This document shows, piece by piece, positions 4,964 to 60,479 of a stretch of 64,000 bases of DNA. Source of the DNA: Botryococcus braunii (taxonomy: Eukaryota; Chlorophyta; Trebouxiophyceae); contig KV908599.1 in the NCBI GenBank assembly GCA_002005505.1, positions 85,576 through 149,575 on the forward strand, in the 5' to 3' direction. The stretch's first letter is position 1. Each line of letters starts with the position of its first letter. The translations under genes were made by a program, and so were the position numbers. The notes beneath the pieces are model-generated. The model searched no databases. It was not told the DNA's origin and saw nothing but the letters and a program-made list of their open reading frames with translations.

Positions 4964-5042
4964 TTCCGATGGAAAATGAGCCGTTCGATAAGACGATGTA
5001 GTTGGTGCCAAGAGAGTTACCCACATTGATAGTGTTGCTCAC
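4964..5042 (-). pseudogene. Viral fibre gene, fragment 2 of 4
   Basis: About 25 codons read on minus, including NVGNSLGTNY and VLSNGSFSIG. They have the Asn/Ser/Gly-rich style of the fibre repeats. On its upstream side the copia-2 LTR begins (TSD CTCAC at 5038-5042 and 26274-26278) and the frame joins the end of fragment 1 at 26279. On its downstream side the gypsy-1 LTR begins (TSD CGGAA) and the frame joins fragment 3 at 46471. It is far too short to recognise alone; the case rests on both TSDs and the in-frame joins. Confidence 0.75.
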
Positions 5043-5439
5043 TGTTGTGTTTGAGAGAGGATAAGGTACGTATCCGGATGTACAGGGTCACGTATGTACG
5101 TGAGTACGTGTGCTCTCTCAAGTACACTTTTTGGTTTTAGGCACGTCACTTGACAAGCTTGAACAAACATTAGATGTGCATTAGAAAACCATGCACCAGG
5201 ACACAAAAATTGCTGTTATATAACACTCCTAATGCATATATGTATTAGAAGACCTGGAGAGAGTGCCCTCCGTGGGAGGTAGGGGTTCATAGCCCATCAT
5301 GCAAGCACAGGTCTCAGTCAATGAAGTTCAAGGAACTGTGATAGAGATCCTATCGAGAGTGTACACGTGTAGGACAGGTGCAGAAGATATAGCATAAGTC
5401 CGTACTTCGTGGGTGTGACAAGTGTACCTCACACACTTA
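5043..5439 (+). repeat. copia-2 5' LTR, first part
   Basis: This is nearly identical to 24823-25220, the start of the 3' LTR. It includes an AAGGTAC motif near 5064. Similarity stops at 5439 (after CACACACTTA) and resumes at about 19511, which marks the inner insertion. No TSD is seen around the inner insertion. Confidence 0.8.
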
Positions 5440-6000
5440 TACCATTGCCACGGGAGGGCTAGTAAACCCCTCAGGAGGGGTGACTACGGAGGAACAAGCA
5501 CGTGACTCCAGATCACGGATGAATGATCTGAGATATTTCAGGGGAAGCAACGGGTGAACGAGCTCATAAGGCTATCAAGCTTGGTCAAGGGTAGTAGATT
5601 CAAACTGGAGAGACAGGAGCGGTGTTTCAATTAGCTTGACTGAGTGTACCCTGGTGACGGACGGCTCATCGCACCTTTATTGGTGACGGTGGTCGGGACC
5701 ACGGGTTTTGGAAGAAGTAATCTGTACTTGTTGTTTCTCAGCATGACTTAAAACAAGCTCCCTCGAATTGTTTGAGGATTGTCAAGCTCGTGAGTTGCCG
5801 GTTCCACGTTTGCGACGAGCATTAAGCCGACACAGAAAAGGAAACGGCCACTGGCTACGCCATACGGGCGGCAAGGTGATGTATGAGTAATTTCAGCCTT
5901 GGCGTAGCGGTGACGCCGACTTGAAAGCAATGTCGATTTGAATGCAAGCAATATGATGAACTGATCGCTTAGAAGCTGCGCTTCGCAGTCTGCGCAGCTT
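5440..6000. other. Unassigned sequence inside the inner insertion
   Basis: I see no gene of more than 70 codons with recognisable content. The stretch lies between the broken copia-2 LTR and the 3' tail of the non-LTR element. It could be the outer end of the DIRS-like element or of an unrecognised repeat. Confidence 0.4.
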
Positions 6001-6091
6001 ACAGGAAGGAAGGAAGGAAGATTACATCCAAAGACCAGCCACTAGGGCTGAAGAGGACGGCAGTACAATGAATGACCCATATCTTAGCCAA

Positions 6092-9000
6092 CTAAGGTCG
6101 CACAGCACCTGGGAGAGTGAGGTAGCTCTCCAATGCTCTAGTCACAAATTTGGCAACCCCTTCAAGGTCTTCTTGCCACATAAACGTCTGTACAGATCGA
6201 CTCCTTTGTTGAAAGAGATGCATAAATTGTTGTCGTACATGTTGTACAGCCGGACAGGTGAACAACAGATGATGTTCATCACCAACGAGCTCTAAGGAGC
6301 ACCTCGTGCAAATCCTCTTGTCTCGAGGGATGCCTTGTTGTCTACCTTTATCAATAGGAAGGTCATGACACCCTAATCTAAATCGCATAAAGGTCCGCAA
6401 TGTACAATTAGGAAGGTGGAGTTTGAGCGCACTCTTACGCCGTGGCACATGAGGCGGACGTGCGAACCACCTTTGGTATCTGCAGAATAAGGCTCTTGGG
6501 GATGCACAAGTGCGAGGGGAGATGTCCAGGTCATCCCATATCATGTCACTTTTACGGTCTAACAGATCCTTTACCTGTGAAATGTCAATCTGCAAGGCTC
6601 TATCAAACCGCACATGGTCAGCTATATAGTATCCTAGTTTCTTAAGTTGTTGCATAAGGGTACCCGAAAACGTTTCTCGGCCTTCTACTATTGCCAACCT
6701 AATGTCATGCATGAGGACCTTGTAGTGTAATGAATCAGGTCTCATGGCCGCTATATTGTTCCAAAACCTGGCCATACGTAAGATCCAAGTTGACCACAAA
6801 GAAAATATGTTTAATTCACAATTGATTATTTCCTCAGGGATTGTCCGACGCACCCCCAAAATCTGAGCTAGGACCCGCTTGTGCGCATCCAATAGGGGTA
6901 TACTACTAGGTTTTCCCGAAGACAATTGTCTGCCTTGAAAGCATCTGAATGCCCAGACTTCACATCCATAGGAGATGAGGGGTGGTAGGCAAGCTAAGTA
7001 CAGTTCTGTCATGAGCATCATTGACATGTTGCAACCGAGATTGCTATAAGCTCTAGTAAGGTCTTCCCATGCTATCCAGAACCTCTGCTCGAGGTTCTTA
7101 ATGCCGGCTTGAAGGCCATTCTTGGCATGAATCTGTAATCCAAGGTATTTAACCTCCTGTACCGGACCAATTCTAACCCCTGCAACCTCTAGACAGGTAG
7201 AGGGTGTCCGAGGGTCTGGATTTACTGAAAGGTATTGCGTCTTGGCCCCATTTAGGCGCATGTCCATACTCTTACACCATTCTTGAGTAGCATTCACCAA
7301 CACCTGTAGGTCCTCAACTGTAGGCGCGACGAGAACAAAATCGTCCGCAAAACCTAGCACTTGGATACGTATTATATTTAAACGTGTGCCATCAGGTAGC
7401 TGAAGGCCAGCCGTGGGACAATGGTGTGCAAGATATCGGGGGAGTCCATCCGACATAATTCCAAATAGTGTAGGGCTAATGGGGCACCCTTGAGGAACAC
7501 CCGCACTTGATTTAAACAACCCCCCATGTTTGCCCTCAATCTTGATCGCCAAAACTGTACTGTCTATTACAGCTTGAGTAGCATAAAGAAAATCCCCTTG
7601 GATTCCCAACTGCTCCAAAATATGCCCTAACTTAAGACGCGATACCCTGTCGTAAGCTTTAGAGAGGTCCAGGAATGCAAAATGCAGTGGAGTGATGCCC
7701 ATTGCCCAATCTATGAGGTGTTGTATAACAAACAGTTGATGGGTGGTGGACATTTCAGGACGGAAGCCTGTTTGGCAATCAACACGCAAACGGTACTTCT
7801 CCAAGTAAGATACCAGACGCGAGTTCAACACGTTGGCATACAACCTCATAAGAGATTCGCCCACGGCAATGGGACGATAATTTCCTCTGTTATACGCGTC
7901 CCCTTTCTTATATACCGGTGTCACCAAACATACATTTGACTCCGCCGGTAAGGTACGTTGTCTAAGCGCCATAGTAAAAATGTCCGCAATGACATGACTT
8001 AACAGGTTTCGTGAGTAAGGATCCCCCGGGTGTGTAAGTGGCTGAGCATACCTAAACAACTCTGTAGGGTAACCATCTTTCCCCGGGGATTTCCCATTGG
8101 CAAGTGCTCGGAGACCCAGTTCAATTTCCTCGACTGTGAAGGGAGCATTCAGCTCGTCGCACTGGTCGTGACCATGATCTTCTGGGACTTGATGGGGAGG
8201 ATATGCCCCAATAGGCAGACCATGCGCGGGCTCTTCAGTTCCAAGACCGCTTGCAAGGGAATTTATATAAGAATCCCAAGCTGACACATCTCTAAGGGGT
8301 TCAGGCAGTCTATCTCTTTCACGCCGAAGGGTTTTCCAAAACCTATGGGGGTTGAAATGCTTTTGGTGTACCAATGTTTTTAGCTTTTGGGCCTGGTATG
8401 CCCTTTTCTTTTTCCTCACAATAGCATGGTACTTACGCTCTAACCTCCGGAACTCATCACCCCGCCATTTGGTTAACATTCCATACCTCCAGACTTCCCG
8501 TTTAAGGGCCCGGCATTCCTGGTCAAAAAAGGGTTGATGTTGACGCCGGTGTCCATTGTGGGGATATCTTTTGTATTGGTCATGCATTCCTGCTTTCTTT
8601 GCAGCATCTTTTATGAGTGCGTATAGGCAATGAATGCTAGACTTAATGTCCCCATCTTCAACCGCTTTTTCACATTGGCTCATGAGGTTTAACTCATCAC
8701 TCTGTAATGCTTGGACATATTGATCCCTTGCAAATTGGCACCAGCTAATTTGTGACAATGGGTGTCCCCCTTGATCAGAAGAGGGACACGGTCTAGGATG
8801 AATAGGAATAGACAAGGATGCACATAGTGGGAAATGGTCAGACTCTGACCTCTCACAATCAATGCCACTGTCTTCTAGGTGTGGGATAAGATTTGGGGAT
8901 ACAATGATATGGTCAAGTCGTGTTGCAGCTGATCTACGCGTACCATGGTACGACACACCGGCCGGGATATCTCCCCTGACACGGCCAGTGCAAATGTAAA

Positions 9001-9541
9001 CGCCTAATTTGTGGACAGCACGAAGAAGTTGCCGCCCATGGGGATTGACCTTTGGGTCCCCTCCAGGGGCCATGGGGGGAAGGGGACCAACTCTAGAATT
9101 AAGATCACCCCCTAGGAAAGCGTACCCTTCTACCTTTGCCTTACCGAGTGTTTTCTGGATTTCTTTCATTCTATTAGACAAACTCAAAGATGATAGAAGG
9201 GGTGATCCAGAAGGGGGAATGTAAGTTGTTCCGATGATTAGAGGTAGTCCACCACCCTTGAACTGAATCTTAGCCCACAACGATCCTTGTTTGGTGCAAT
9301 AGGGGAGAATATGGTATTCATTGCTATATCGAATACCAAGCAATAAGCCTTCCCCTGCCCTCCCTGAGTGTGATGCAGGGTGAAAGAATAGCTTGAAGGG
9401 GGCCCAGAGGTCTCTTTCGATAATTTGTCTTCTAGTCTCACTGAGCATGATAATGTCAAAGGTGTGAAGGTACTCTAAGAGGCCTCGAGATAACAGTTTT
9501 TCAGTGCTAAGGCCATTTATGTTCCAAACTATACATCTCAA
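6092..9541 (-). CDS. LINE ORF2 protein: AP endonuclease, reverse transcriptase, zinc-binding C-terminus
   Basis: An intact 1149-aa frame. It would nick target DNA and copy the element RNA at the nick (target-primed reverse transcription). Residues 1-240 are an exonuclease-endonuclease-phosphatase domain: MRCIVWNINGL, GGDLNSRVG, RLDHIIVS and SESDHFPL carry the expected Asn, Asp and His residues. RT spans about 470-760: FLDLSKAYDRV, GVPQGCPISPTLF and the FADD box (LGFADDFVLV). The last 150 residues hold a Cys/His cluster (CTRCSLELVGDEHHLLFTC). No stop or shift is seen, so this is the best preserved element in the window and may be recent. An RNase H domain is not obvious. The clade cannot be fixed without a tree. 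Confidence 0.9.
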   Translation of the reverse strand: MRCIVWNINGLSTEKLLSRGLLEYLHTFDIIMLSETRRQIIERDLWAPFKLFFHPASHSGRAGEGLLLGIRYSNEYHILPYCTKQGSLWAKIQFKGGGLPLIIGTTYIPPSGSPLLSSLSLSNRMKEIQKTLGKAKVEGYAFLGGDLNSRVGPLPPMAPGGDPKVNPHGRQLLRAVHKLGVYICTGRVRGDIPAGVSYHGTRRSAATRLDHIIVSPNLIPHLEDSGIDCERSESDHFPLCASLSIPIHPRPCPSSDQGGHPLSQISWCQFARDQYVQALQSDELNLMSQCEKAVEDGDIKSSIHCLYALIKDAAKKAGMHDQYKRYPHNGHRRQHQPFFDQECRALKREVWRYGMLTKWRGDEFRRLERKYHAIVRKKKRAYQAQKLKTLVHQKHFNPHRFWKTLRRERDRLPEPLRDVSAWDSYINSLASGLGTEEPAHGLPIGAYPPHQVPEDHGHDQCDELNAPFTVEEIELGLRALANGKSPGKDGYPTELFRYAQPLTHPGDPYSRNLLSHVIADIFTMALRQRTLPAESNVCLVTPVYKKGDAYNRGNYRPIAVGESLMRLYANVLNSRLVSYLEKYRLRVDCQTGFRPEMSTTHQLFVIQHLIDWAMGITPLHFAFLDLSKAYDRVSRLKLGHILEQLGIQGDFLYATQAVIDSTVLAIKIEGKHGGLFKSSAGVPQGCPISPTLFGIMSDGLPRYLAHHCPTAGLQLPDGTRLNIIRIQVLGFADDFVLVAPTVEDLQVLVNATQEWCKSMDMRLNGAKTQYLSVNPDPRTPSTCLEVAGVRIGPVQEVKYLGLQIHAKNGLQAGIKNLEQRFWIAWEDLTRAYSNLGCNMSMMLMTELYLACLPPLISYGCEVWAFRCFQGRQLSSGKPSSIPLLDAHKRVLAQILGVRRTIPEEIINCELNIFSLWSTWILRMARFWNNIAAMRPDSLHYKVLMHDIRLAIVEGRETFSGTLMQQLKKLGYYIADHVRFDRALQIDISQVKDLLDRKSDMIWDDLDISPRTCASPRALFCRYQRWFARPPHVPRRKSALKLHLPNCTLRTFMRFRLGCHDLPIDKGRQQGIPRDKRICTRCSLELVGDEHHLLFTCPAVQHVRQQFMHLFQQRSRSVQTFMWQEDLEGVAKFVTRALESYLTLPGAVRP

Positions 9542-9562
9542 CCTCAGGTGGCTAGATATTTC

Positions 9563-9862
9563 CTATTGAGGGGTTGAGGGGTTGGGACCCAGGTCACCTC
9601 CCTCTAGGGTGGAAGGAGTCATAAGCTCTTCAAGCTCTGGCTCGCGTTGAATGGCGATACGCTTGCCATCGGTGGCCCCCGGGACATGGCGGGGAGTCGT
9701 CCTCTGCTGGGGTGGCATCCAATCCATGCCTTCAGCTGTGGCTGCATCCTCTCGTTGTACTTCGCTTACGGTGTAGGGCATTGTGGCTTGGACGCCAGGG
9801 GCTCGGTCAGCGTGGGCGGCAGCCGGCCGGCCCCCAGGCACTTGTCGGGGACGTGCGCCCAA
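9563..9862 (-). CDS. Possible C-terminal part of LINE ORF1
   Basis: A 99-aa Pro/Arg/Glu-rich frame 21 bp upstream of ORF2. No RRM, coiled coil or zinc knuckle is visible, so a nucleic-acid-binding ORF1 role is only inferred from position. It may be a truncated ORF1 in a 5'-truncated element. Confidence 0.35.
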   Translation of the reverse strand: MGARPRQVPGGRPAAAHADRAPGVQATMPYTVSEVQREDAATAEGMDWMPPQQRTTPRHVPGATDGKRIAIQREPELEELMTPSTLEGGDLGPNPSTPQ

Positions 9863-11307
9863 GGTCCCAGGGTACCCAGGGGACCAAGCGCATACAGCGT
9901 TGCAAACAACGTGCAGACCACTGTCACAGGATTTGAAAAGCAGTTTCTTTGTCCGACCATATGGTTTGTTGTTGCCGAAGCTAAGCTTAGTCCAGCTCGA
10001 GTGCCACTATTGCTTGCTACAGCTGTGTTTGCAGGGACTGAATAGTGCTGCGAAAGCCCACATAGACAAAGCTTTTGGATTTGCGGTGAGTGGTTGATGC
10101 CTCAAAAGTTATTCTAAGCTATGTTCCGAGCTCTTGTATGCCAAAGCTTTATTGATTTGATTGTAACTGGGAGGACTGACCGGGTAAGAGCAGAATGTTA
10201 AAGCGCAGCCGGGGAAGAAGGTAAGGCTGCATCAAAGAGCTGGGAAGGATTGAAAAAACATGCTTATAAGTGCTCGTGTCGTGGCACACAGTTTCACATA
10301 AGCAAGCTCTTTGGCATTTGAATTATGCTGAGGTTGGAATGGTTGCTAGGGCCTGCAACTTCAGTTAAGCGCTTGCAAAGAAGACGGTGGCTGGTGGGCT
10401 ATGCAAGGCTCGTTATTTGTTTATGTGCATGCATTCTATCCAACATTGAGCAGGTGGAGAGCTCGGCGTAGCCGTCAGGGCCTGAAAATTGCAGGTGGGA
10501 CACAGAAAATTGGGGGCAGAGGAAGGGCTGGACCAGGAGTACAGCGGCTGGGACTCTTCAAGGGTTCCCCAATGTGAATATATGCAATTACTAAAGCTTG
10601 TCAGCCTTTAAGACATGAATGATTCAGCCCTCCGGTAAAGGAGTGCATGAGTGGGCTGGCTAGCAGTCTGTAGAAGTTGGAGGAAGCGCACGGGAAGAGC
10701 GAATCAGGGATTTGCATGCAGCCCAGTTGTCCCACATTGTGATCTGTCTTGCTGTGTGTGGAGTTAAAAGGGCGGGGGCTTTTTCTTGCTTGTTAATGTT
10801 TGTTGCTGACAGTGCATGCAAGGTGCAAGGTGAGAGGACCAATGGCCAGGCAGGCCAGGTGTTGGACATGGGCTACGGCACGGTTGTGCGTTGTCAAAAG
10901 ATTTGTTCTGTTTGACACCTGAACTAACACAAGGGGGGATTGGTTTTGGTCTGGACAGAAATTGCAGGATGAGAGCATGCATGAGAAGGCAGCTTGCCGG
11001 TGCGCTTGGCTAAGAAGATCTGCAAGGGCATGTGGCAAGTGCTTGACCATGAATATGGCTGTTGGACCTCATCAAGGTTTCTCATTGTCTGGTACGTAGT
11101 ACGCATGGCTGGGGTGCAACAAGGGCATGGGGGAATATGGCATGGGGGAAAGGGCATTGGAGGCCTGGGAGGCATTGGTTGGCAGGCTGGTCGGGAAGCC
11201 TGGGCATGGGGTTCATGATAATTTTGGCATAATAAGGGTACTGTAGTCCAGGATGGGTAACCGTGCAAGGGCTGGCAGGCCAGGGAGTGTGGGGCCAAGG
11301 GATTGGC
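9863..11307. other. Unassigned sequence between the LINE and the tandem array
   Basis: There are only short overlapping frames on both strands and none recognised. From about 10.9 kb the composition becomes GGCAGGCC-rich and merges into the tandem array that follows. Confidence 0.4.
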
Positions 11308-13650
11308 ATAAGGTACAATTGAAATAAGGTACAGTCCAAATACATTAGGCTGACCGGGAAGCCTAGGCATGGGGTTGAGGACGATAGGGCAGCTGGGGGT
11401 GGCTATGGAGGCTATGGAGGCAGGGGAGGCAATGGAGGCCTGGGAGGCATTGGAGGCCTGGAGAGGCATTGAAGGCCTGGGAGGCATTGGAGGCCTGGGA
11501 GGCATTGGTTGGCAGGCTGGCCGGGAAGCCTGGGCATGGGGTTCAGGATAATTTTGGCATGATAAGGGTGCTGTAGTCCAGGATAGGTAACCGTGCAAGG
11601 GCTGGCAGGCCAGGGAGTGTGGGGCCAAGGGATTGGCATAAGGTACAATTGAAATAAGGTACAGTCCAAATACATTAGGCTGACCGGGAAGCCTAGGCAT
11701 GGGGTTGAGGACGATAGGGCAGCTGGGGGTGGCTATGGAGGCTAAGGAGGCATTGGAGACCAGGAGCGGCATTGGAGGCCTGGGAGGCATTGGTTGGCAG
11801 GCTGGCCGGGAAGCCTGGGCATGGGGTTGGTGATAATGTTGGCATGATAAGGGGGCCAGGAGACAGTAAGGATGGGTAACCGGGCAAGGGCTGGCAGGCC
11901 AGGGAGGGTAGGGCCAAGGTGATTGGCAGAAGGTACAGTTAAAATAAGGTACAGTTCAAATACATTAGGCTGTGCTGCCAGAGTGGGGGCAGCTGGATGT
12001 GCCTATGGAGGCTGAATCCTCGTGGGGAGAGGTACGGCTGGGTGGAAAGGACCAGCGCTGAAAAGATGAAGTAGCCTGGAGGTTGGCAGGTGTAGGGCTA
12101 ACCCCAAGAAGGCATAAGGGTGCTGTGGGCCAGGAGACAGCAAGGATGGGTAACCGTGGAAGGGTTGGCATGCCAGGGAGGATAGGGCCAAGGTGACTGG
12201 TTTAAGGTACAGTGTAAATCAGGTACAGTCTAATTACATCAGGCTGTGCTGATAGAGTGGGGCAGCTGGATGTGCCTGGGGAGGATGGATCCTCTTGGGG
12301 AGAGGAAGGGCTGGGTGGATAGGACCAGCATGGAAAAAGAAAATAACCTGGAGGCTGGCAGGGGTATGGCAAACCCGTAGGAGACTTCGGCAGGCAGGCA
12401 GGGAAGCTTGGGAATGAGGTTAAGGATAATCTTGGCTGGATAAGGTTGCTGTGGGACAAGAGGCAGCAAGGATGGGCAACAGTGCAAGGCTGGTAGGCCA
12501 GGGGGGACTGGGTCGAGCGGTTGGCATAAGGTACAGTTTAAATAAGGTACAATCTAGATACATGAGGCTAAGCATACAGCTTGACAGGTATAAGTATGCC
12601 ATGTTAACATGCGAGCATGCGTAAACACAAAGCCACACACAATAATCATAGTAGGCCAGGATGGGAAGGCCGGGGGAAAGGGCAGGCAGGGTAGAGCAAT
12701 GGAAGGGGGGATCAGATGGGACCAGCAGGGTGCTGGTATCTAATAACGGTTGCATGGGGGATGAGGGAGGATGGTGTATGTCAACAATCAATGTAACCGT
12801 GTGTGGTATGCTAACTCTGTGGGACTGATCAAAAGGAACCAGGGGATCTGTAGTTGCAATTGGTGATAGGGATTTGGTGAACGGGCCTTAAAAATTGCAC
12901 GATAAGAGCGCTGTGGGCCAAGAGACAGCAAGGATGGGTAACCGTGAAAGGGCTGGCAGGCCGAGGGGTGCAGGGTCAAGGTGACTGGCACATGGTACAT
13001 TTAAACAAGGTACAGCCTAATTGCAACAGGTTAAATTGTCAGGTTGGGGCAGCTGGAGGTGCCTATGGAGGCTGGACCATCGTGGGGAGAGGAAGGCTGG
13101 TGGAAGGAAACAGCAGAATGGAACGGAATTAGCATGGAGCCCGGCAGAAGACGGCAATCCCTTAGGAGTCTGTTGGCAGGCAGGTAGGGAAGCCTGGGCA
13201 TGAGGATAATGATTATACTGGCAGGGTAAAGGTGCTGTGGGGCAGAAACATTACGTATGACTAACCAGGCAAGGCTGGCAAGCCAAGGGGGGGCTGGGCC
13301 AGGGGCTGACATAAGGTACATTTTGTTAAATAAGGTACATGCAAGATACAGGGGTTGTGCATACAGCCTGGAAGGTACCTGTATGCGATGGAACATGCGA
13401 ACGTGCGCGTACGCAAGTACACAAACGGTAACCACCCGTACGCCAGGCTGGGAAGACATGGAAGGAGGGGCAGGCATGGTACAACCAAGGAAAGGGTGAT
13501 CAAATAGAACCAGCAAGGCGCTTGCATCTGATAAGGGAGGCATGGAGGCTGAGGGAGGGAACGCCTGGGTGGCAGGGCAGTGCTTGGTATTAGTGGATTT
13601 GGAGGAGCAGGCGTTCCATGTGCCACATGATAAGGCAGAGTACATCCTGG
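11308..13650 (+). repeat. Degenerate tandem array, about 274-330 bp units (one interval 463 bp), with paired AAGGTACA motifs
   Basis: A pair of AAGGTACA-like motifs about 12-17 bp apart recurs at 11308, 11638, 11928, 12202, 12526, 12989 and 13311. Each pair is followed by similar GGGGCAGCTGGA and TGGGGAGAGG segments and a GGCAGGCCAGGGAG-like stretch. The first two units are nearly identical with a period of 330 bp; later ones are diverged. One more unit is at 17489-17600, beyond the hAT and DIRS fragments. The long reading frames here (Pro/Leu/Ser-rich on minus, Gly/Trp-rich on plus) follow the repeat composition and are not taken as genes. Confidence 0.75.
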
Positions 13651-13892
13651 AGCAACTGGGTGCACAAACAGGGACTTGGATAGGTTGGCAGGCATGCTAG
13701 TGAGCATGAGTCCTGAGGTACGGCTGGCTCCTTTGTACACCAGAAGGTTATTTTCACGACATGGGGGATTTCCAGGAGTGGGGGAGAGCCTGCCAGAGGA
13801 GCTGGAAGGTTTGTCTAAGGAAGATTTGTTGTACTGAGTAGAGGCCTTGAGGAATTAGAAAGGCAAACCATGGAGGCAGGAGGGGCCTGACT

Positions 13893-14206
13893 ATGTGTGC
13901 TATGGGGATGCCTCTGCTGGGGGATATGGAGATTTCTCAGAGGAGTTTGGTGGTGCAGCCAATGCAGGAAAGCTTCACATTTGAGGAACAAGAGCTGGCT
14001 AGCAAAGGGTCGTTGTCATCATGTCACTGGGAAATGAAAAAGATATGTCTGTTGGGAAGGACATGTATCAGAGCTAACAGTGAGAAGTTTCGGGAAGCTG
14101 TGCTGCTGGTGTTGTGGGACAGCCAAGGGGCAGTGTCAAACGTGAATAACATGAATTGGGAGGCCCACACCCCGAGGGAGTTCAGGTTGAGGTTTGAGGC
14201 AGCAGG
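13893..14206 (+). pseudogene. DIRS/Kangaroo-like RNase H fragment, part 1
   Basis: The frame ends with VLLVLWDSQGAVSNVNN and a segment resembling the RNase H core of tyrosine-recombinase retrotransposons, where a 'D-x-x-A-V-x-x-x-N' motif is usual. It runs into the left end of the hAT element at 14207. The frame is kept on the other side of the hAT (16605 onward), since element plus TSD is 2406 bp, a multiple of three. The upstream RT is not recognisable. Confidence 0.55.
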
Positions 14207-14394
14207 CAGTGAAATTTTTAAGGAATCTTGGAGTTATGCCACTTGGCATAATTTGGCTCAGTAATTTATTTTTCGTCTGCCACAGGGTGGCAGACACGGC
14301 AGGAATAATTTAATTTCCCCCCGCCACGGTGGCAGAATTAGCATCAAATCAAGAGTTTCGCCAACTTACCACAGAACTCGCCGCTTTTGTACCT

Positions 14395-14550
14395 CTGCTG
14401 GAGTTCGATCACGAAACTCGCCTCTTTTGTAGCAGACCCCTACCTCTGCTCGAGTTTGATCACGATACTCGCCTCTTATGTAGCAGACCCCTACCTCTGC
14501 TGGAGTTTGATCACGAAACTCGCCTCTGCTCTAGCAGACCCTATCTCTAG
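14395..14550 (+). repeat. Subterminal tandem repeat of hAT copy 1
   Basis: A unit of about 51 bp (CTGGAGTTTGATCACGAAAC followed by TCGCCTCTTTTGTAGCAGAC) is repeated about three times. The same array is in copy 2 at 34770-34930. Such subterminal repeats often bind hAT transposase; that role is inferred. Confidence 0.7.
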
Positions 14551-15198
14551 AGTCTGATCACAAAAGTCGCCGCTCCTGTACCAGCTTTACCGCATACCCT
14601 TGTCTTGTTTAGAGTCATTGAATAAGACTTCTGTTTTGATGTCTTGAAAGACTATCAATTCCAACACCCAACCTCTCCACTGCATTATTTGCACATGCAC
14701 GATTCACTCGCAGCCCTTCTTGCTGTTTTTAATGCAACTTGAGCATGTACATAAAGCGTTTCCAACAACACACAACAAAGAATTCAAGTTCATCAGTAAA
14801 TAGCAACACGAGGGATCTCTCCTTTGCAGGATACTTTTTGCCATTCATTAACATTACAAAGCCATGCTGGAACCAATCGGATATTCAATACTAGCACCGG
14901 TCTGACAAACTTGCTACATTCAATGCGGATATCCAAGTAAGGTGCAGACTAGAACTATGGAAGGCCTGAACTAAACCGTTGGTTCTTTCATTCATCCTAT
15001 CAAAATATGGCATCCATCACACTCTCATCAACAAAGACGGCATTATGAGACCTTTTCATTGCCGAATGCCCAGCAGTGACACCTCTGCGTTCTTTCGCAT
15101 TCAAGAAGTAGTCAAGAGCTTTTTCATAAGGAAAAGTTTTCATGTCATACGCTGACATGCATGATATGAATAGTTTTCATGTCATACGCTGACATGCA

Positions 15199-16404: not shown

Positions 16405-16604
16405 ATGCCACCGCGGCAGAAATCCCTATCTTGAATTCTTTTCCCTCTGCCACTCGGTGGCAGAATCAGCCTCTCCGCATTTCTTTTTCGCTGCCTGAAA
16501 TGGCAGAGTCGGAGGGTGCAAAATGGGATTATTCTGCCAGCCAACCGCTCGGAATTATTTAATTCTGCCAAAATGGCATAATTCTGCCACTAAAAATTTC
16601 ACTG

Positions 16605-17071: not shown

Positions 17072-17156
17072 GCATTGTAGTGGGAATATGAATTGGCTCT
17101 GAAGGCGGCTGAAAGTCAGAGGGCATCAGGCACGGTAAAACGGGCAGGGGATGGGC

Positions 17157-17455: not shown

Positions 17456-17488
17456 CCATGGTCAGGGGGCCAGGGCAAGGCGACTGGC

Positions 17489-17600: not shown

Positions 17601-17650
17601 TGGAAAGCAACCAGGAGGAGAAAGGAAAGCACATGTAAGCCTGAGCAGGG

Positions 17651-19460: not shown

Positions 19461-19510
19461 CCTATTGTAAACCCGATTGGGGACTCCGGATTGGCAGACA
19501 AAGACTTCGT

Positions 19511-41232: not shown

Positions 41233-41327
<95 letters not shown>

Positions 41328-50567: not shown

Positions 50568-50626
50568 TCTGATATGGTGGTCTCCAGCACGAGAAGGAGG
50601 GAGGCCTTCAGGAAGTCCAGACAGTA

Positions 50627-51118
50627 TGTAGTGAGGTGCCGCGTCAGCGCGACGCGTCTCACGTCCCCTGCGCGTAGGATGTGCGCGTAAGCATAATGTT
50701 CGTAATGGTGTGCGCGTAGTTCATGTTTCTTCGTGCCCTTTGGGATACGAGTAGATCTCGTTGTCCTTGTGTGTAGGAAAATGACTGTAATATCCTAGTG
50801 GGTCTCCTCTCGTCATCCATATCGTTATGCTCGCGAGAGCATCTCGTAGAGGGACGACGTAGCCGGATCCGCGCATAGGTGGACTAGGAACTCGGGTGGT
50901 TATCATTGTCTTTGGGTTTTTGCTGCTACGAGTGAGACATCTAGCATTCTCTACATTGTTCATTATATATTGTTCTTTGGAGACTCGGACGACCTGCGTG
51001 AGGAGGGCTGCGAACTTGTAACGGATTGGAACTTCGATTTCTACCTTCGGTGTCACCCTTGCCTGATACCCTTGCTTAGCTTGTTATAAATCTTAGTTAC
51101 ACGTCTCACTTCGTTAAA
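50627..51118 (+). repeat. gypsy-3 5' LTR (492 bp)
   Basis: Looks identical to 55567-56058, so the insertion is probably recent. A 111-aa minus frame is present in both LTRs and has no known match. Confidence 0.93.
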
Positions 51119-51200
51119 TTGGTATCGGCGAGGCGGTTAGAGCCTCGAACCGAAGGGAGACGTAGGGAAGGTTGTAATTGCATTGTTCCATTGCAACATG

Positions 51201-52405
51201 ATGGCGGTTAAACGGAAAGGAAACAAGTACTCCGGTCTCCCCCTTAAAGAGAAAGAAATTTTGGAAGGTTTGGAAAAGGAAGGTATTGAAGTCGATGATC
51301 TTTTGGAAGAGTCCGAAACGGAATTGCATCTGGCCCCATCGCCCAAACCGACCACACCCAAAACGAAACCCAAACCCACTCCTTTGAAGACACCCTTGAA
51401 GAAAAATAAGACTAAATCCCTAATTCTACGGTTATTGAAGCGGATTGAGGCCTTGGAGGGAGAACGAGCATCCAAGCGGACGTCATCCACCACTAACGTC
51501 GTGCGTGTGCCTACACCAGCCATGTTTACAGGAAAAAGAGGAAGCTTCCAATTCTTTGCTAGTAAGGTGGAATCATATGTGAACATTTCAAATGTGTCAA
51601 GGGACAAGTGGGTGGCAGTCGCGCTGCAATGTATGGAGGAGCGACCTACAAAGGTTTGGGGGACATACCTCAAAAGGAAGGAAAGGGAAGGAGGTCAAAC
51701 AGAGCCAACATGGGAAGACTTTAAAAATTTTATGGGAAATCGATACGACTCTACAGATTTGGTTATGGCTGCCCGGCAAAAATTAGACCATGTTTATCAA
51801 GGGCAAGAAAGCGTTGAAAGATACATAGAAAGGTTTATTTCCTTGTTGAGTGATGTAGAAACCGAATATGACATCTGCGAAAATGATAAAATATATATGT
51901 TCCTCAAAGGCCTGAATGCTCCTATTAGAGTTGCTTGCACAGTTAACCCTCAAACTGGTGTCAGGTTCACAAGCCTCGACTCATTGTGCACTTATGTGGT
52001 GCAATATGAAAGCAACTTAAAATCAGGGGGGATGCTGAGGGGACAGGAAGGAAGGAAGGTTCTCAACGTTGTGAAGAGGACTCCAACAAGCACGCCGGCA
52101 TACTTTCCGGGATTCACCCAGGGCCTGTGCTTGGAGCCGTCGGACACAACGTTGGTGGGAAGTTAGATTCTCGGACAAGCGTCCCCTCCGAGCGCCAGTG
52201 TTATTTCTGCAAAAACTTTGGTCACGAGCAATGGCAATGTCAGGCCAAGCGGGACTACTTGCAAAGGAAGAGCAGGCGCGACAGTCAATTGCCCCCACCT
52301 CCTCCTTTCCCCTCTAATCAAGCTCGAGGTGGGCAGTGGAAGGGCCGTGGTGGCCGGGGAGCACATTGGAAGGGAAAAGGGCCGGGGCATAATCCTCAAA
52401 AGTAA
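51201..52405 (+). CDS. gypsy-3 gag with zinc knuckle
   Basis: Frame 51183-52166: a Lys/Glu-rich start (MAVKRKGNKYSGLPLKEKEI; 51201 is the preferred ATG), a Pro/Lys-rich linker, then the gag capsid domain (AVALQCMEERPTKVWGTYLK ... WEDFKNFMGNRYDSTDLVMA ... ESVERYIERFISLLSDVET). A frameshift near 52140 moves the C-terminal CCHC knuckle (CYFCKNFGHEQWQC) to the frame 52127-52405. It would package the element RNA. Confidence 0.8.
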
Positions 52406-52416
52406 ATTCTGAAGCC

Positions 52417-52959
52417 ATGGATGCCACTTGCTTGCATGTTTTGCACTCTCTTGTGGCCTCCAATTTGGGAAAGGAAGGGGTGAACCTTGTGGTGCCAAAT
52501 GTTAGGAAGGCTGAATCTGAGATTTCCAAGTTTTTATGGGAACAAAGGTGCAACCCGTCCCTCACTTGTTGTTTCATTGTGGGAAGGAAAACTTGGAAAA
52601 GTAAGAGTCTCTATGCTCACCGTATGCAAGGAAGGATTGTGGAAGTGTGTTCAGGAAGGAAGGGACAGGCGGTGGACATGAATGGTCAAACTAGTGTATA
52701 CCCATTCTCTTTTGTATGTTGTGTGGTTCCCCCAAGACCCACACTCACCATGGGAAGTGTTACTACTGACTCTCCGCTAGCTATGACCTTTCCGGCGAAT
52801 GTTAAGGGGAAAATCCTTTCAGTGTTGTTTGACTGGTGGACATCACCGGGGAGGACGCCTCAAGTGAGGCCGACTTGGCGGACACCGACAAATCTATGGA
52901 CGACACCCCCGTCGTCACAAAACCCCCCAGTAGTACCGGTACCCTCTCCCCAGAATTGA
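52417..52959 (+). pseudogene. gypsy-3 protease-region remnant
   Basis: A 180-aa frame with no clear DSG active site. HVLHSLVASNLGKEG and the later Pro-rich stretch are unassigned. It sits where protease and the N-terminal RT should be, so part of pol has been deleted. Confidence 0.5.
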
Positions 52960-54208
52960 CGATCTGTTGGATAGGCTTAAGGGAGCCAAGGTGTTTTCGA
53001 GCTTGGACTTGTTGTCTGGGTACCATCAAGTGCGACTTCGCAAGGAGGATGTGCCTAAAACTGCCTTCAGGACCCCTTTTGGCTTGTACGAATTTCTTGT
53101 ACTTCCCTTTGGTTTGACCAACGCGCCCGCGACATTTCAACGGCTTATGAATGAGGTTTTTCACGACTTTATAAGGGAAGGCTTTGTGGTTGTATACTAG
53201 GATGATGTGCTCATTTATAGCAAAACGGAAGAGGAACACCTTCTGCAGTTGGACAGAGTTTTCACCCGTCTACGCGAACATCAACTCCTGGCAAAACTTG
53301 TCAAATGCTCTTTCTTTGAGAAACAATTGAAATACTTGGGACACATCATTGGGGAAAATGGGTTGGAAGTGGATATGGATAAAGTCAAGGTGGTGCAGGA
53401 GTGGCCTACGCCCACAAACGTAACGGAAGTTAGGAGGTTTCTTGGGTTGTCTAATTACTTTCGAAAGTTTATTCAGAACTACAGTATCCTGGCAACCCCA
53501 TTGACAGCTCTCTCTGGGGCAAAAGCACCTTGGAAGTGGGGACAGGAACAACAGGAAGCATTTGACAACATAAAGGAAGCTTTGGTAAGTGCCCCTATCT
53601 TAACACTCCCGGACGTACGTCGGCCATTTAAGGTAGTGTGCGATGCATGCGATTACGGCGTGGGAGCTGTGCTGTTTCAAGATGGGAAGGTTTGTGCGTA
53701 TTTCAGTAAAAAGTTGGGAGCAAGCGAGAGGAACTACAGTGCCACGGAACGGGAGTTATTGGCTGTAGTGTATGCTCTCACGGAATGGAGGTGTTATTTG
53801 TTAGGTAAGCCAGTAACGGTGGTGACGGATCACAAGTGCAACACCTTCTTGGGTCAACAGGTGGGGCTTAGTCCTCGGAGGGCTCGGTGGGCCGAGCGCC
53901 TGCAGGAGTTTGAGATTGAATGGGTATGGGAACCGGGCAAGACCAACATTGCGGATCCGCTCTCCAGGTGTCACTCAACACCCTGGACCTGGGGGGAGGG
54001 ACAATGGGGCTGCTGTGGCCGGGGCTGCCCTCCGGCGCAAGCGTCGGCGCACCAGTCCGGACTCCCTCACCCCCTCCAGCCGGGATGTCGAGGGTACCCT
54101 CACAGCTCAGGTCCGCAAGGTCCCCAAGGTCACGCTCCCGGGGCCCGCTCACGAGACCCCAAGCTCCCTCGGCACGATGGAGCAAATCGGGTTGGCCAGC
54201 CCGAGTGA
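52952..54208 (+). pseudogene. gypsy-3 RT (partial) and RNase H
   Basis: RT starts inside the palm ([58 protein letters not shown]). The catalytic box reads VVY-stop-DD: the residue before the two Asp is a TAG at 53198-53200. The frame then continues as VLIYSKTEEEH and the connection domain to RNase H (FKVVCDACDYGVGAVLFQDG) and the end VVTDHKCNTFLG. After about 53960 the frame runs into low-quality sequence. Confidence 0.85.
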
Positions 54209-54890
54209 GCTTACCCGCGAGACCGATGGGTACGAATCCCTACTTGGCAAACTTGAGAAGGCTTACACATACGATCCGTGGTTGGCAGCGCGTGCGAATA
54301 GAAGGAAGGTTAGTCTAAAGGGAGGCTTTTGGGAGAGGAATGGACGGAAATATGTTCCTGCATTGTTTGAGGAAAGGAAAGATGGGGAACTTGTCGTGGA
54401 GAACCTACGACGTGGAATTTTGGAAGCTTTACATGATCCACCTCATGTTGGTCACCCTGGAGTAACTCGCATGTACGAGCTTGTAACAAGGGAATGGTAT
54501 TGGCCGGGAATGTATGAGGATGTCAAAGCCTATGTTGCTCATTGTGACTCTTGTCAACGAGTCAAGGCTCGGAATACTTTGCCTGCTGGTCTTCTTCACC
54601 CCTTGCAAATACCAGGAAGGAAGTGGCAAAGTGTGTCTATGGACTTTATTACTAACCTCCCACAGACCCCAAGTGGAAATGATGCTATTTGATTTGTCGT
54701 GGATAGGCTTAACAAGTGTGCTCATTTTGCTGCTACAACAATGAAAGCTGATGCTTATACTCTAGCACAATTGTTAAGGACATGGGTGTGGATGTATCGT
54801 GGATCCCGGGTGTGGTGGCATTGTGGATCACAAGCCACTCACTGGCGAACGCGGCCGCACTCTGGACGATCCGAACGAGCCAAATGAGGA
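53910..54890 (+). pseudogene. gypsy-3 integrase, truncated
   Basis: A shifted frame carries the linker and the integrase zinc finger (PPHVGHPGVTRMYELVTREW, CDSCQRVKARNTLPAGLLHP) and the first Asp (SVSMDFITNLPQTPSG). A TGA lies at 54690, after NDAI. The next segment (FVVDRLNKCAHFAATTMKAD) leads on to about 54780 and then similarity ends; the second Asp and the Glu are missing. The rest up to the 3' LTR (54890-55566) holds no recognised gene. Confidence 0.75.
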
Positions 54891-55566
54891 TAGCTGGAAA
54901 TAACTTGCACAGGTCACGCGTTGTTGCCACAATAAAGTGGAAGAATACAGAGAGAGTCACGGGCTCCCGCCATTGCCTCCCAAGGGCACGACTTCTAGGG
55001 TCCACCCTTAGGGTCCCGTCGACCGGTTGGCCCTCCTTGGAGGGGTCTCTCTGTATGGCCATATGGACTTTGGATAGGCTAGGGTAAGGCTGCCTTACCC
55101 GGTAGGGTTGACCATGGGTCCCTTACCTGGATAGATTTTTGTGCACATTAGGTGTATGGCCTTTTCACTTCACTACCACACCTGATCAATATGGTGCAAT
55201 ACTGGCGTAATACTGGACTATATGTGGAAATTGGACTCCCCTTGGACTCTGGACTTTTGGACATCTGGACTTTTAGCTCTGCCCTTGTGTCTCATTTTGG
55301 CTGTTCATCATGTGGACTTTCGTTTTTCTTTCAGTGTTTTGTCTTTTGTTCTGTTAGTCATGCCTGATCCTTGTTGTTATTGCATTATGGTGGGGACCCC
55401 GATACGCAGCATTCGGCTGGGGTCTGGCAACACGGGAGGCGGGTTGCCCGTAGGTCTAAGTCTGAGTCTCCGCATGTTGGAAGGTCTTGTTCCTTTGTTT
55501 GTCTTGTCTGTTTGTTGTTGCGCTCTGCCTTCTGCGCGGGGACGCACAGGAATAAGGGGGGGAGTA

Positions 55567-56058
55567 TGTAGTGAGGTGCCGCGTCAGCGCGACGCGTCTC
55601 ACGTCCCCTGCGCGTAGGATGTGCGCGTAAGCATAATGTTCGTAATGGTGTGCGCGTAGTTCATGTTTCTTCGTGCCCTTTGGGATACGAGTAGATCTCG
55701 TTGTCCTTGTGTGTAGGAAAATGACTGTAATATCCTAGTGGGTCTCCTCTCGTCATCCATATCGTTATGCTCGCGAGAGCATCTCGTAGAGGGACGACGT
55801 AGCCGGATCCGCGCATAGGTGGACTAGGAACTCGGGTGGTTATCATTGTCTTTGGGTTTTTGCTGCTACGAGTGAGACATCTAGCATTCTCTACATTGTT
55901 CATTATATATTGTTCTTTGGAGACTCGGACGACCTGCGTGAGGAGGGCTGCGAACTTGTAACGGATTGGAACTTCGATTTCTACCTTCGGTGTCACCCTT
56001 GCCTGATACCCTTGCTTAGCTTGTTATAAATCTTAGTTACACGTCTCACTTCGTTAAA
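55567..56058 (+). repeat. gypsy-3 3' LTR (492 bp)
   Basis: Second copy of 50627-51118. A purine tract (AAGGGGGGGAGTA) precedes it and the TSD CAGTA follows. Confidence 0.93.
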
Positions 56059-56793
56059 CAGTACATCCTTAAACTCCTGCAAAAGCTCCTCCAACTCTGG
56101 CACATTGTGTGCATCAGTATCTGGACTGTCAGTCACTGCATTTAATTGAACAACATAGATTGATTCACCCAACTTCACCATCTCTTCTACTTCCATAGAT
56201 GAGATCACATATTCTGGCATGCCTGACCTCTGACACCCCAACAATACATGTGTTTTGTTGTCATGAGTCAAGGACACAGCATTCAATTTCCAATTAACAA
56301 CTGGGTTAAAAGCAGTGAGCCAAGGTTTGCCCAAGACAAGATCATAATACATCAACTCAGTAGGGAGGCAGGTGACTCTAAAACCCAATGTCCCAACAGT
56401 CAGGTCAGTTGACACACTATGTCCTACCATAGATGTTCTCCCATCAGCCACTCTTACAGTAACATGTGAACTCAAAGATTCAGTGGGAAGGGCAAGCTCC
56501 TGCACAAGTTTATCATCAATAAAATTTGCAGATGCTCCACTGTCTAACAAAATCCTGACAGTCCTACCAGCAAGAGTTCCCTCAAACTCAATACAAGTAG
56601 CTGAAAGATCAGGACCATCCACAATGTGTCTACTGTCTAGCTGGACAAAAGAGTCAAAACAGGTTGCAGGCAGTGGCTTCTTCTTCACACCGAGACAGCC
56701 AGACTGTACCAAACAACTAAACAAGGGCAAGCCTGTATGGGAATTGCAATGGGGTGTGCACATAGTGGTGGAAGATAAACCCAATGCAGCCAA
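56059..56793 (-). pseudogene. gypsy-2 aspartic protease region
   Basis: The active site VRILLDSGASANFIDDKLV is present, with flanking strands (GTLAGRTVRILL, LTVGTLGFRVTCLPTELMYY, DLVLGKPWLTAFNPVVNW) of a retropepsin fold. The frame runs on to LEELLQEFKDVLF, the pre-RT linker, where gypsy-3 is inserted. It cuts the gag-pol polyprotein. Confidence 0.85.
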
Positions 56794-57237
56794 AATGTAG
56801 CCGAAAGTAGCAATTCATGTGATTGCTGTGAAGTAGTCCCTTCCAGCACCTGTCCACAGTGACTTGAACAAGAAAGCACAGTCAATCTGGTCCCTGGTAA
56901 CAACTGTGACACAAGCTGGCTGACAGAATCCTCTCTATCACTACTATCAACAAACAAAACAACATGAGCATCACTATCAATAAGGTGAGGAGCTGCATCT
57001 CTCTTACACATGCTCTCAGGACTAGCTAGGTCACTGGCAGAGGGGGATGTCTGAAACTCTCTACACAAACCATGCCCACCTACAATATGGGTCATGAAAT
57101 TATGGTAACAACTGTGGAAATAATTCTGCAGATGACCAAGCTCATACAAAACAGGAATACCATACTGGGGCTCTGAACAGTTGGCTGGCATCATAAACAG
57201 GACTCACACTGCTGTTTTACCAAGAAAGACCCACAAA
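56794..57237 (-). pseudogene. gypsy-2 gag-pol linker
   Basis: Frame 57194-56685 (169 aa) lies between the zinc knuckle and the protease. No domain is recognised; it may be a spacer, and its overlap with the protease frame points to a frameshift near 56750. Confidence 0.5.
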
Positions 57238-58275
57238 TCAAGTAGTACTTGACTTGCGCTTGGGTTGTCTGAGCTCTGGATGCAATTTCCAGCAACGCTC
57301 TGCTGCGTGTCCTGCCTTGCCACAATGTGCGCAGGGCTGCGCAGAAGTTTTTGTCGGGCCTGGTGACTTGGAGTCAGGGGAGAACTTTGGAGCAGGGTTC
57401 ACAGGCTTAGACGGTCCTGGAAGGTCTGATATTGTCACAGCATGCTTGAAGTGGTCTTCCAAGGTCTGGGGATACTGTAGGGAGATGCTTTTCTGAAGAT
57501 CAGCCCTGCAGCCAGCCAAAAATAAGTGACACAAAGTCTCTTCTGCAAATGCCTTTGGAACCTTTGACCTCAATGCATTAAATGTTGCAATATAGCTTCG
57601 CATGTCAGTCTTTCCCTGTGAGAGACTCAGCAACTGCTCTAAATGCCTCTTATGCAGCTCTACAGGCCTAAAAGCAGCAGTAAGTGCAGTCACAAACGAT
57701 TCCCACGTCCCATAAGCAGCAAGACTCCCTGAAGGAATTAACTTAAACTGCCCAGTCCACCAATCCAATGCTTTTCCTCGCAAAAACATCGCTGCCACCT
57801 CTACAGACCTCCTCGTCTGTAGATCTACATCGTACGCACGCAAATACATCTCGGTTTGCATGAGCCATGGATCCAACTTCATTGGATCTCCCTCAAACAC
57901 AGCCGGATCCGGGAATTTAAGAGAAGGCTTCCCTGAACTGGTGGACGACGCTGTTGCCGGTGCCGGCATGGACGTTGGCACAGGCTGAGGCGCCACCACT
58001 GGTGCAGGCTGAGCCAGCGCCAGCTGAATCACTTTCTCTAACCCATCTATGATGTTTTGAGTCGGCGTCGGAGTAGGGGCAAGCGAAGGAACACCAGATC
58101 CACTAGCAACGGCTAGTTGCGGCAGAGCACCGATGTCTTGTAAATGCCTTATCATAACAGCAGGATCTACAGCTGATAAGTCTACATCTTCATCATCCTG
58201 AAGATCTAAAGCTGGATCTTGCTCAATAGGGCTACGAGCACGGGCTCTCGAACCGGAACGCGGATGCCGCGACAT
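57238..58275 (-). CDS. gypsy-2 gag (345 aa) with zinc knuckle
   Basis: Intact frame. The N-terminal 90 residues are Arg/Ser/Asp-rich, then a Pro/Ala linker. The Retrotrans_gag domain spans about 120-270 (DPWLMQTEMYLRAYDVD, MFLRGKALDWWTGQFK, LLSLSQGKTDMRSYIATFNA, LCHLFLAGCRADLQ). The CCHC knuckle CAHCGKAGHAAERCW is near the end. It would form the particle and bind the element RNA. It starts 71 bp after the 5' LTR, just past the primer-binding site. Confidence 0.9.
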   Translation of the reverse strand: MSRHPRSGSRARARSPIEQDPALDLQDDEDVDLSAVDPAVMIRHLQDIGALPQLAVASGSGVPSLAPTPTPTQNIIDGLEKVIQLALAQPAPVVAPQPVPTSMPAPATASSTSSGKPSLKFPDPAVFEGDPMKLDPWLMQTEMYLRAYDVDLQTRRSVEVAAMFLRGKALDWWTGQFKLIPSGSLAAYGTWESFVTALTAAFRPVELHKRHLEQLLSLSQGKTDMRSYIATFNALRSKVPKAFAEETLCHLFLAGCRADLQKSISLQYPQTLEDHFKHAVTISDLPGPSKPVNPAPKFSPDSKSPGPTKTSAQPCAHCGKAGHAAERCWKLHPELRQPKRKSSTT

Positions 58276-58346
58276 AATGAACTGCGAGAGAAAAGGAAAC
58301 GCACCACGAACAACGACAAGGAACTAATCCTTGTCGCCGATACCAC

Positions 58347-58607
58347 TGTAGCGTTAACTAAGCGGAAGAGGTTTTTATGAGACAGTGAGACGTTCGTGGT
58401 GTGCAACGAAAGAGTGTTACATGATTGATTCGCAAGCCCACTCTTAAACCCAGGGTGGGTTGAATTATACTGTACTGCCTCAGACGCGTAGTCGGGCAAC
58501 CGAGCGAACTATCTGAGCGAGGTTGTACTGCGAACCCAGATCACATGGCAAGTCAATGAGCAATGCCAAGGACCATACTAGAGCATTATACCCTAGGAAA
58601 TGCTACA
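58347..58607 (-). repeat. gypsy-2 5' LTR (261 bp)
   Basis: The partner of 46842-47102. TSD TAATG follows at 58608-58612, and the fibre gene resumes. Confidence 0.93.
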
Positions 58608-60479
58608 TAATGTCACCGCAAGCTACCTGTTCGGCAATGCCTCACAGCTCACGGATCTGCCCACGAATGTCTTCACGGGCTTGTTGAACAACAACCAGCT
58701 CCCCTCTTCCATCAACGTCCCAGGTGCCATCGTGTCGAATACCTCTATCTCAACAGCTGGTAATGTCACCGCTAGCTACCTGTTCGGCAACGCCTCACAA
58801 CTCACGGGAATCAGAAACGCCCAGCTGCCCTCGACGATCGGGTTCAACAGCATTCTGGCAAACACATCACTTGTCCTTGGGGCCGCGGCATCCCTCGCTG
58901 GCTCCCTCCTCAGCGGAACGCTTCTCGGAGGCAACTTGACAACCCCCGTCTCCACTCTCGTCTCAAATGCTTCCGTCCAAAAGGGAGGGTTTTTCATTGG
59001 GGATGGGTCGTTCCTGTCGAACATACGCCCCAGGAGCATAAACGGTTCGATAACCAACGCTCAACTACCGTCCACTATCAGTGTGCCTCTCAATACATCG
59101 GGGAACATCTCTGCCAACTTCTTCCTCGGAAATATTCAAAACGCCTCGGCTATTCAAAACTCCCAATTGCCTTCCAACCCCGCATTTTGAGGCACTGTTC
59201 AAGCAGCTGCGTTCTCTACATCAAGAGGGATATAGACGGCGAGCAATTTCATCTGGAACATCTCGCTTTGTAACGGATTGACGAACGGCCAGCTCCCAAG
59301 CTCGATCTCTATACGAGGAAACATCAACTCGAACGCATCCATCACGGCCACAGGCAACATCTCGACCCCTCTGTTCGTCAACGCAGGCTATTTTTTCGGA
59401 AACGGCTCACAGCTCACGGGACTCACCAATACCAAGCTTCCAAACAATATCTCGTGTAGCTATTTAACAGTCAATATATCTCTTCAATCGACAGGTGCAG
59501 CCACGTTGGCGGGGTTATTCTGTGGAAACGTGAATCTGTCGCGTGGGGTCCGCACGAGCTTTGGAAGTATAATCAATTGCGACACGATCACGTCGAACGT
59601 GGGTGCGTTTCCAGGCTGGGCTCAAGCCAACACGTACTGGCTCGCATCGACGCAAGCATGGAATGCCTCGGGGCCCACGACATCCACGTACATGGTTTCA
59701 GGAAATTGGGCCCGTCAACTTACTATGGGGGGACGACCACGAGCAGCATGCCCATCATTTTAGCGAATTGCTCACTGTATTCGTGGGGATTCATTTTTGC
59801 GGACGGAGGAATGTTGAGCAACATCCGAGGTCAGAACATCGCGACACAAATTAACAACAATTTCCTGCCCACGACGGTGAAGATAGGAGGCACCCTACGA
59901 GCAAACGGGGGGACGACCTTGACATCCACGCTCGGGGTCAATGGAAACACCTCTCCGTCTTCCTCGTACCCCCTGTCCGTGCAGGGAGGGGCTTATTTCC
60001 AAGGGAATCTCGCGTTTCACGGAGGAGCGTACTTCGATTCGTATAATGGGTTGAGTGAAAACGGTATTTCTATCGTTTGGGGAGGGACTAACACGAGCAC
60101 TTTTGTCTTTCAAAGCGACACGAACGTAGTGACGTACAACAAAGTGGGAGTGGCTACCTGGTCGACAGGACCGATCAACTCTGACCGATGGTTCAAGAAA
60201 AACGTACGAGATATGGGGACCGTTTCGAGCACGTTGAGAAACATCAAGGCCCGCAGGTTTGAATATATAGACGACTCATCAAATACGGGGCAAGTTGGTT
60301 TTATGGTGGACGAAGTCACCCCCTTCTTACCCGAGGTCGTTCAACCTATAAGGAACCCAGAAACGGGGACGGTCAACAACCTCATCAGATACGAGAAAGT
60401 GACACCGTATCTGGTTCAAGCATTCCAGGAGCTCGATATCCGAGTCTCTGCACTCGAGAAGGGCACAAAAAATAAATGA
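58608..60479 (+). pseudogene. Viral fibre gene, fragment 4 of 4, with C-terminal S74 autochaperone
   Basis: The first part repeats 'YLFGNASQLTGI/L..QLP' and 'IVSNTSISTAGNV' many times, as in fragment 3. In-frame stops are at 59188 (TGA) and 59233 (TAG); a frameshift near 59700 moves to the frame that ends at 60479. The last 110 residues match the intramolecular chaperone (Peptidase_S74) of tail fibres: SDRWFKKNV, then ARRFEYIDD, QVGFMVDEVTPFLPEVV, and a C-terminal helix (YLVQAFQELDIRVSALEKG). The Ser (60180-60182) and the Lys five residues on match the self-cleaving pair known from endosialidases. In that family the domain helps trimer folding and then cuts itself off. Confidence 0.88.

What the first reader, a model, noticed from the sequence alone, without database searches (positions are those of the whole stretch)
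4964..60479. One viral fibre gene is split into four pieces on two strands by three retrotransposons, and the pieces can be ordered from TSDs
Fragments at 28034-26279 (minus), 5042-4964 (minus), 46471-46841 (plus) and 58608-60479 (plus) share composition and repeat motifs. At each break a retroelement has matching 5-bp TSDs (CTCAC, CGGAA, TAATG), and the codon phase is kept across it. Together they give about 3.9 kb, roughly 1300 codons, ending in an S74 autochaperone. Only the order is claimed here; several stops and frameshifts show the gene is dead.
Basis: partly seen in the sequence, partly recalled or inferred. Interest (0 to 1): 0.9.

Follow-up and report, generated by a model that had tools for sequence, protein, structure and literature searches.

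The report
Algal virus fibre gene shattered by retrotransposons
A dead fibre gene of a small DNA virus lodged in a green alga's genome was broken up by at least four retrotransposon insertions and then partly flipped, probably by recombination between two copies of yet another retrotransposon; a well-resolved case made of known kinds of event.

Summary
The four pieces belong to one fibre gene, in the stated order. In a relative in the same genome (C603) one open frame runs through all three junctions, and the piece ends overlap there by the 5 bp of a single target site; a second relative (C174a) agrees at three of three. TSDs, LTR ends and the S74 domain check out.

Corrections. (1) A fourth insertion, a 164-bp solo LTR of a small TRIM-like family, splits the first piece (TSD GTGTC). 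(2) The three elements do not make the strand switch. The middle one, X, is itself cut by an inversion. At both ends of that inversion lie inverted copies of another LTR element, Z, with exchanged TSDs (CCAGC/ACAGG and ACAGG/CCAGC), the mark of recombination between them; an assembly flip would look the same. (3) The virus looks polinton-like rather than giant: related copies carry a double-jelly-roll capsid protein and an A32-like ATPase. The host is most likely Botryococcus braunii.

S74 fibres and nested retrotransposons in such viruses, and element-mediated inversions, are described. New member of a known kind.

The parts
27856..28034 (-). Fibre piece A1, from the ATG to the small insert
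   Evidence: Frame 0 matches the start of C356 and C32 relatives
27692..27855 (-). Solo LTR (164 bp) of a small TRIM-like family; TSD GTGTC at 27687-27691 and 27856-27860
   Evidence: empty site in relatives
26279..27691 (-). Fibre piece A2
5043..26273 (.). First large LTR element; LTR 1451 bp (right 24823-26273; left 5043-5439 plus 19520-20547, split by nested sequence 5440-19519); TSD CTCAC at 5038-5042 and 26274-26278
   Evidence: LTR parts 98.7% and 98.3% alike
4964..5042 (-). Fibre piece B (26 codons)
4617..4963 (-). 5' end of element X (LTR 4963-4801 and the start of the interior); TSD CGGAA at 4968-4964
1..4616 (-). Copia-type element nested in X, running on beyond the window's left end; LTR 696 bp, TSD GAGCC
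29587..39431 (+). Right copy of LTR element Z, at one end of the inversion; ACAGG before it (29582-29586), CCAGC after it (39432-39436)
39432..46470 (+). 3' part of element X, a Ty3 chromovirus by its domains, with a further insert at 39932-41772; LTR 46308-46470
46471..46841 (+). Fibre piece C
   Evidence: one stop
46842..58607 (.). Third large LTR element Y, Ty3-type domains inside; LTRs 46842-47102 and 58347-58607, identical; TSD TAATG
58608..60479 (+). Fibre piece D with the S74 domain at about 60180-60341
   Evidence: two stops
28046..28636 (+). Divergent neighbour gene, open, also next to the fibre in C356 and C32
60481..61092 (+). Lipase-like neighbour gene, open (Lipase_3 21.7 bits, just under the cut-off of 22)
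61100..63169 (+). Next viral gene, split by an insert of about 1 kb (about 61401-62428)

Best explanation
A block of an endogenous polinton-like virus in the nuclear genome of a green alga (most likely Botryococcus braunii) holds a fibre gene that ends in an S74 chaperone domain. Four retrotransposon insertions (a TRIM-like element, now a solo LTR, and three large LTR elements) split it into five pieces. One of them, X, later received a copia element and an LTR element Z. Recombination between that Z and an inverted Z just upstream of the gene flipped a segment of about 41-51 kb, which cut X in two and put the first part of the gene on the other strand. Shown: one gene, the order, the insertion sites with empty sites in relatives, the exchanged Z target sites. 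Inferred: that the flip is real and not an assembly error, the order of events, the virus type, the host name.
For: Abutting matches and 5-bp overlaps in relatives. Exact TSDs and LTR ends. X runs on across the break: positions 343-777 on the minus strand up to -9109 in window coordinates, the rest from 39432 on the plus strand, both cut ends touching Z. Z flanks exchanged, and an intact X copy has CCAGC once at that place. The LTR at 29587-31020 pairs with the LTR at -15648 to -14214 (99.65% over 1435 bp) although they now sit on different Z copies. Host: an intact relative is 100% identical to a B. braunii protein. Virus: capsid fold, ATPase, an IMG/VR contig with S74 protein, capsid relative and ATPase together.
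Against: No reads were seen, so the inversion may be an assembly flip. Capsid and ATPase matches are absent from contig C295, so this block is partial. The right Z has a doubled 3' end that the simple model does not explain. No capsid tree was made. The assembly's size and contig number differ from both published figures.
Confidence: 0.75

Rival explanations
1. Same gene and same insertions, but the flip is an assembly error between two inverted Z copies; in the living genome all pieces lie on one strand.
For: The Z copies are about 6.5 kb and 9.8 kb long and 97-99% alike over most aligned parts, and such inverted repeats can be resolved wrongly. The exchanged flanks would look the same. The authors of PMC11286282 call the genome repeat-rich and hard to assemble (section 30).
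Against: The published Showa assembly used 200x PacBio reads, and a 15-kb mate library was used to find and break misassemblies (PMC5399265, whole text); whether the held assembly is that one is not certain. No second, nearly identical copy of the locus was found in the other orientation: the nearest relative of the fourth piece is 83% (10 candidates scored).
Confidence: 0.2
2. The pieces come from several related fibre copies that were brought together by chance, not from one gene.
For: The genome holds at least six other S74 places, and repeats inside the fibre make pieces look alike.
Against: At each junction both pieces end at the same target site and phase, and single frames in C603 and C174a run through all three junctions with no gap or excess.
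Confidence: 0.03
3. The fibre belongs to a giant virus (Nucleocytoviricota) rather than a polinton-like virus.
For: The best solved matches of the capsid model are capsids of Singapore grouper iridovirus and PBCV-1.
Against: No Capsid_NCLDV or VLTF3 match in the genome, but these searches rang nowhere, controls included, and are weak. None of the 13 capsid relatives has a Pfam match. Sputnik, mavirus and PRD1 capsids are also among the 50 listed matches. Fibre, ATPase and capsid genes lie within about 15 kb in C356 and in C32.
Confidence: 0.15

Closest known systems
Polinton-like viruses with nested retrotransposons (PMC12220804, passages and part 1 of section 13; PMC10120064, passages)
   Same: S74 at the end of long fibre proteins; retrotransposons nested in the virus, also inside tail-fibre genes; a Ty3/gypsy element in a polinton-like virus
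   Different: Here four insertions in one gene are resolved by target sites and empty sites in relatives, and an inversion splits the gene over both strands
Galileo inversion 2z3 of Drosophila buzzatii (PMC2775673, abstract and passages)
   Same: Inverted element copies at both breakpoints, exchanged target sites, chimeric copies
   Different: There a DNA transposon and a known uninverted chromosome; here an LTR element and no uninverted chromosome to compare
TRIM elements (family named in the abstract of PMC3532108, listing; features recalled)
   Same: Short LTRs (164 bp), 5-bp TSDs, PBS-like TGGTATC after the first LTR and a GGGGAGAAA tract before the second in full copies
   Different: No sequence comparison with described TRIM families was made

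Membership tests
Peptidase_S74 (PF13884) fibre | Pfam match over the curated cut-off at the C-terminus | tested here: met
   25.9 bits against 22 in the last piece
LTR retrotransposon insertion (each of the four) | TG..CA ends and identical 5-bp target sites | tested here: met
   Four of four: GTGTC, CTCAC, CGGAA, TAATG
LTR retrotransposon insertion (each of the four) | A single target site in a relative without the insert | tested here: met
   C603 four of four sites, C174a three of three examined; two further C174 places for GTGTC
Ty3 chromovirus (element X) | RT, RNase H, integrase and chromodomain in Ty3 order | tested here: met
   window 42795-45875
Inversion by ectopic recombination between element copies | Two copies in opposite orientation at the ends of the inverted segment | tested here: met
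Inversion by ectopic recombination between element copies | Exchanged target sites | tested here: met
   CCAGC/ACAGG on the left copy, ACAGG/CCAGC on the right copy
Inversion by ectopic recombination between element copies | Both copies chimeric | tested here: inconclusive
   LTR pairing across the two copies fits, but the crossover was not mapped and the right copy has an extra LTR-like stretch
Inversion by ectopic recombination between element copies | Support by reads or by an uninverted chromosome | not testable with these tools
   No reads held
Polinton-like virus | Double-jelly-roll major capsid protein in the block | tested here: inconclusive
   Met in related blocks of the genome, not found on the window's own contig
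Polinton-like virus | A32-type packaging ATPase | tested here: inconclusive
   Homologue in related blocks, not found on the window's own contig
Polinton-like virus | Capsid groups with polinton-like references; 14-40 kb element with terminal repeats | not tested
   No tree made; element ends not sought
Giant virus (Nucleocytoviricota) | Capsid_NCLDV or VLTF3 family match | tested here: inconclusive
   No match, but the controls did not ring either

The most novel reading that the evidence does not exclude
In this alga the endogenous viruses lose their fibre while keeping their capsid. Of 7 S74 fibre loci examined (six and the window) one is a single uninterrupted frame, against 5 of 6 capsid loci. 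The fibre gene is several times longer, which may explain all of it, and both lists are lower bounds; at least one more fibre fragment without S74 exists (C174:138661-139572). If the difference is more than length, capsids without their own attachment protein may be kept by the host.
Probability: 0.08. Interest if true: 0.6.

Novelty: new member of a known kind. Interest (0 to 1): 0.36.

Why it matters
It shows that a shattered viral gene can be put in order from target sites alone, with empty sites in relatives as proof, and that the strand change is a second, separate event that leaves its own signature. It also points to endogenous polinton-like viruses in an oil-producing green alga. Searches with this host's name (no paper, none of the 8 listed of 176 mentions it) showed no report in the held library.

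Tried and rejected
A tRNA-like look of the small insert (by eye) was dropped: ARAGORN and Rfam find nothing. Its size was first taken as 166 bp; exact ends give 164. A viral-contig search with the whole fibre found no relative. PHROGs gave two families of unknown function for the fibre. PDB sequence searches with the capsid protein gave only weak, unrelated matches. Sequence beyond the left Z leads into another retroelement and does not test viral continuity.

Against the reading or left open: capsid and ATPase are not on this contig; the right Z has a doubled 3' end; the 1.84-kb insert in X at 39932-41772 was not identified; one source warns that stops in such elements can be assembly errors (PMC10120064, passage).

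Full report
Setting. A whole, uninterrupted relative of the fibre in that genome (C356) is 100% identical over its full length to a Botryococcus braunii protein (jgi/Botrbrau1), so the host is most likely that alga. Published B-race figures are 170.2 Mb in 983 pieces (PMC11286282, passages) and 184.4 Mb in 2,752 scaffolds (PMC5399265, whole text); neither is an exact match.

The gene. Six other S74 places in the genome gave loci for comparison. Searched apart, the pieces match one open frame of 364 residues in C603: the first piece to residue 92, the second 93-118, the third 118-240, the fourth from 240. In C174a one frame spans the same junctions: the second piece 465-490, the third 490-614, the fourth from 614; the first piece is matched to 464, though that protein alignment stops short of the piece's end. 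C356 holds the whole gene as one frame (1603 residues from its ATG). DNA alignments of the piece ends show 5-bp overlaps in C603 at all four sites and in C174a at the three sites examined; in two C603 cases and one C174a case the alignment stopped two letters short and I extended it without a gap. For the small insert the same overlap is seen at two further places of C174. So each target site is present once in relatives and twice here.

The insertions. Small insert: 164 bp, TG..CA, GTGTC on both sides. Full copies elsewhere carry two such LTRs with target sites of their own, for example GTGAC in L037; 40 of 123 candidates were scored. With its target copy it adds 169 bp and so shifts the frame by one, as the translation shows. 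First large element: LTRs of 1451 bp, 98.3-98.7% alike, the left one split by nested sequence. X: Ty3 chromovirus domains; copies elsewhere are about 5.9 kb by LTR spacing. Y: Ty3-type domains inside, LTRs identical. By LTR likeness the first large element is the oldest of the three; X and Y cannot be ordered.

The strand switch. X's 5' end lies at 4963-4617 on the minus strand. A copia-type element follows (TSD GAGCC), then X again, positions 343-777, ending at -9109 in window coordinates. The rest of X starts at 39432 on the plus strand and ends at 46470. Both cut ends touch element Z. Left Z (-9110 to -15649, minus) has CCAGC before it and ACAGG after it; right Z (29587-39431, plus) has ACAGG before it and CCAGC after it. 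An X copy without Z has CCAGC once at that place. The LTRs at 29587-31020 and at -15648 to -14214 share an extra stretch and are 99.65% identical over 1435 bp, though they now lie on different Z copies. Inverted copies with exchanged target sites are the marks given for the Galileo inversion (PMC2775673, abstract and passages). If the crossover lay in the interior of Z, the flipped part is about 41-51 kb. An assembly flip cannot be told apart without reads. No second, nearly identical copy of the locus was found; the nearest to the fourth piece is 83%.

The virus. The up-gene lies next to the fibre in C356 and C32; the lipase-like gene follows it in C356, C32, C603, C622 and both C174 places; the next gene follows in all of these but C622, where no match was listed. 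C356 and C32 share more, among it a 429-residue protein with 6 loci in the genome, 5 of them open frames without stops and none on C295. It has 15 relatives, one of them named a major capsid protein in Gonium. A model of the relative P0069 (425 aa, mean pLDDT 72.8, 13 sequences) matches 140 PDB chains at E 0.001 or better; the best are capsids of Singapore grouper iridovirus and PBCV-1, and Sputnik, mavirus and PRD1 are among the 50 listed. A 226-residue protein of the same block is 28% identical over 185 residues to a protein of IMG/VR contig L048 that matches Pox_A32 over its cut-off; the same contig has an S74 protein and a capsid relative. That the virus is polinton-like is inferred from this set. 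S74 fibres are described as ubiquitous across such viruses of most eukaryotic groups, and nested retrotransposons, also in tail-fibre genes, as known (PMC12220804, passages, section 13 part 1).

State of the gene. One stop in the third piece and two in the fourth; two frame changes in the first piece besides the small insert and at least one in the fourth. The up-gene and the lipase-like gene are open; the next gene is split by an insert of about 1 kb.

Verdict. The finding is right in substance and is now supported by empty sites. The kinds of event are known, so interest is moderate.

Noticed in passing
window 61401-62428: Insert of about 1 kb in the gene after the lipase-like gene, with repeats of about 7 bp (GCCGATG) at its ends; it looks like a DNA transposon.
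   Followed up: partly
window 14207-16605 and 32705-35103: A 2.4-kb element in two inverted copies, 99% alike, each with a 408-residue open frame without Pfam match.
   Followed up: no
window 37932-38413: A 482-bp stretch between two LTR-like copies at the 3' end of right Z matches nothing in the neighbourhood; why this end is doubled is unexplained.
   Followed up: no
window 50623-55862: Direct repeats 4940 bp apart inside element Y, with gag, RT and integrase parts between: probably another LTR element nested in Y.
   Followed up: no
G000 C174:227225-231273 and 239472-240209; C603:40776-43750; C174:138661-139572: Other fibre copies in the genome are interrupted too; the third C174 place is a fibre start with no S74 found near it, near an X copy.
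   Followed up: partly
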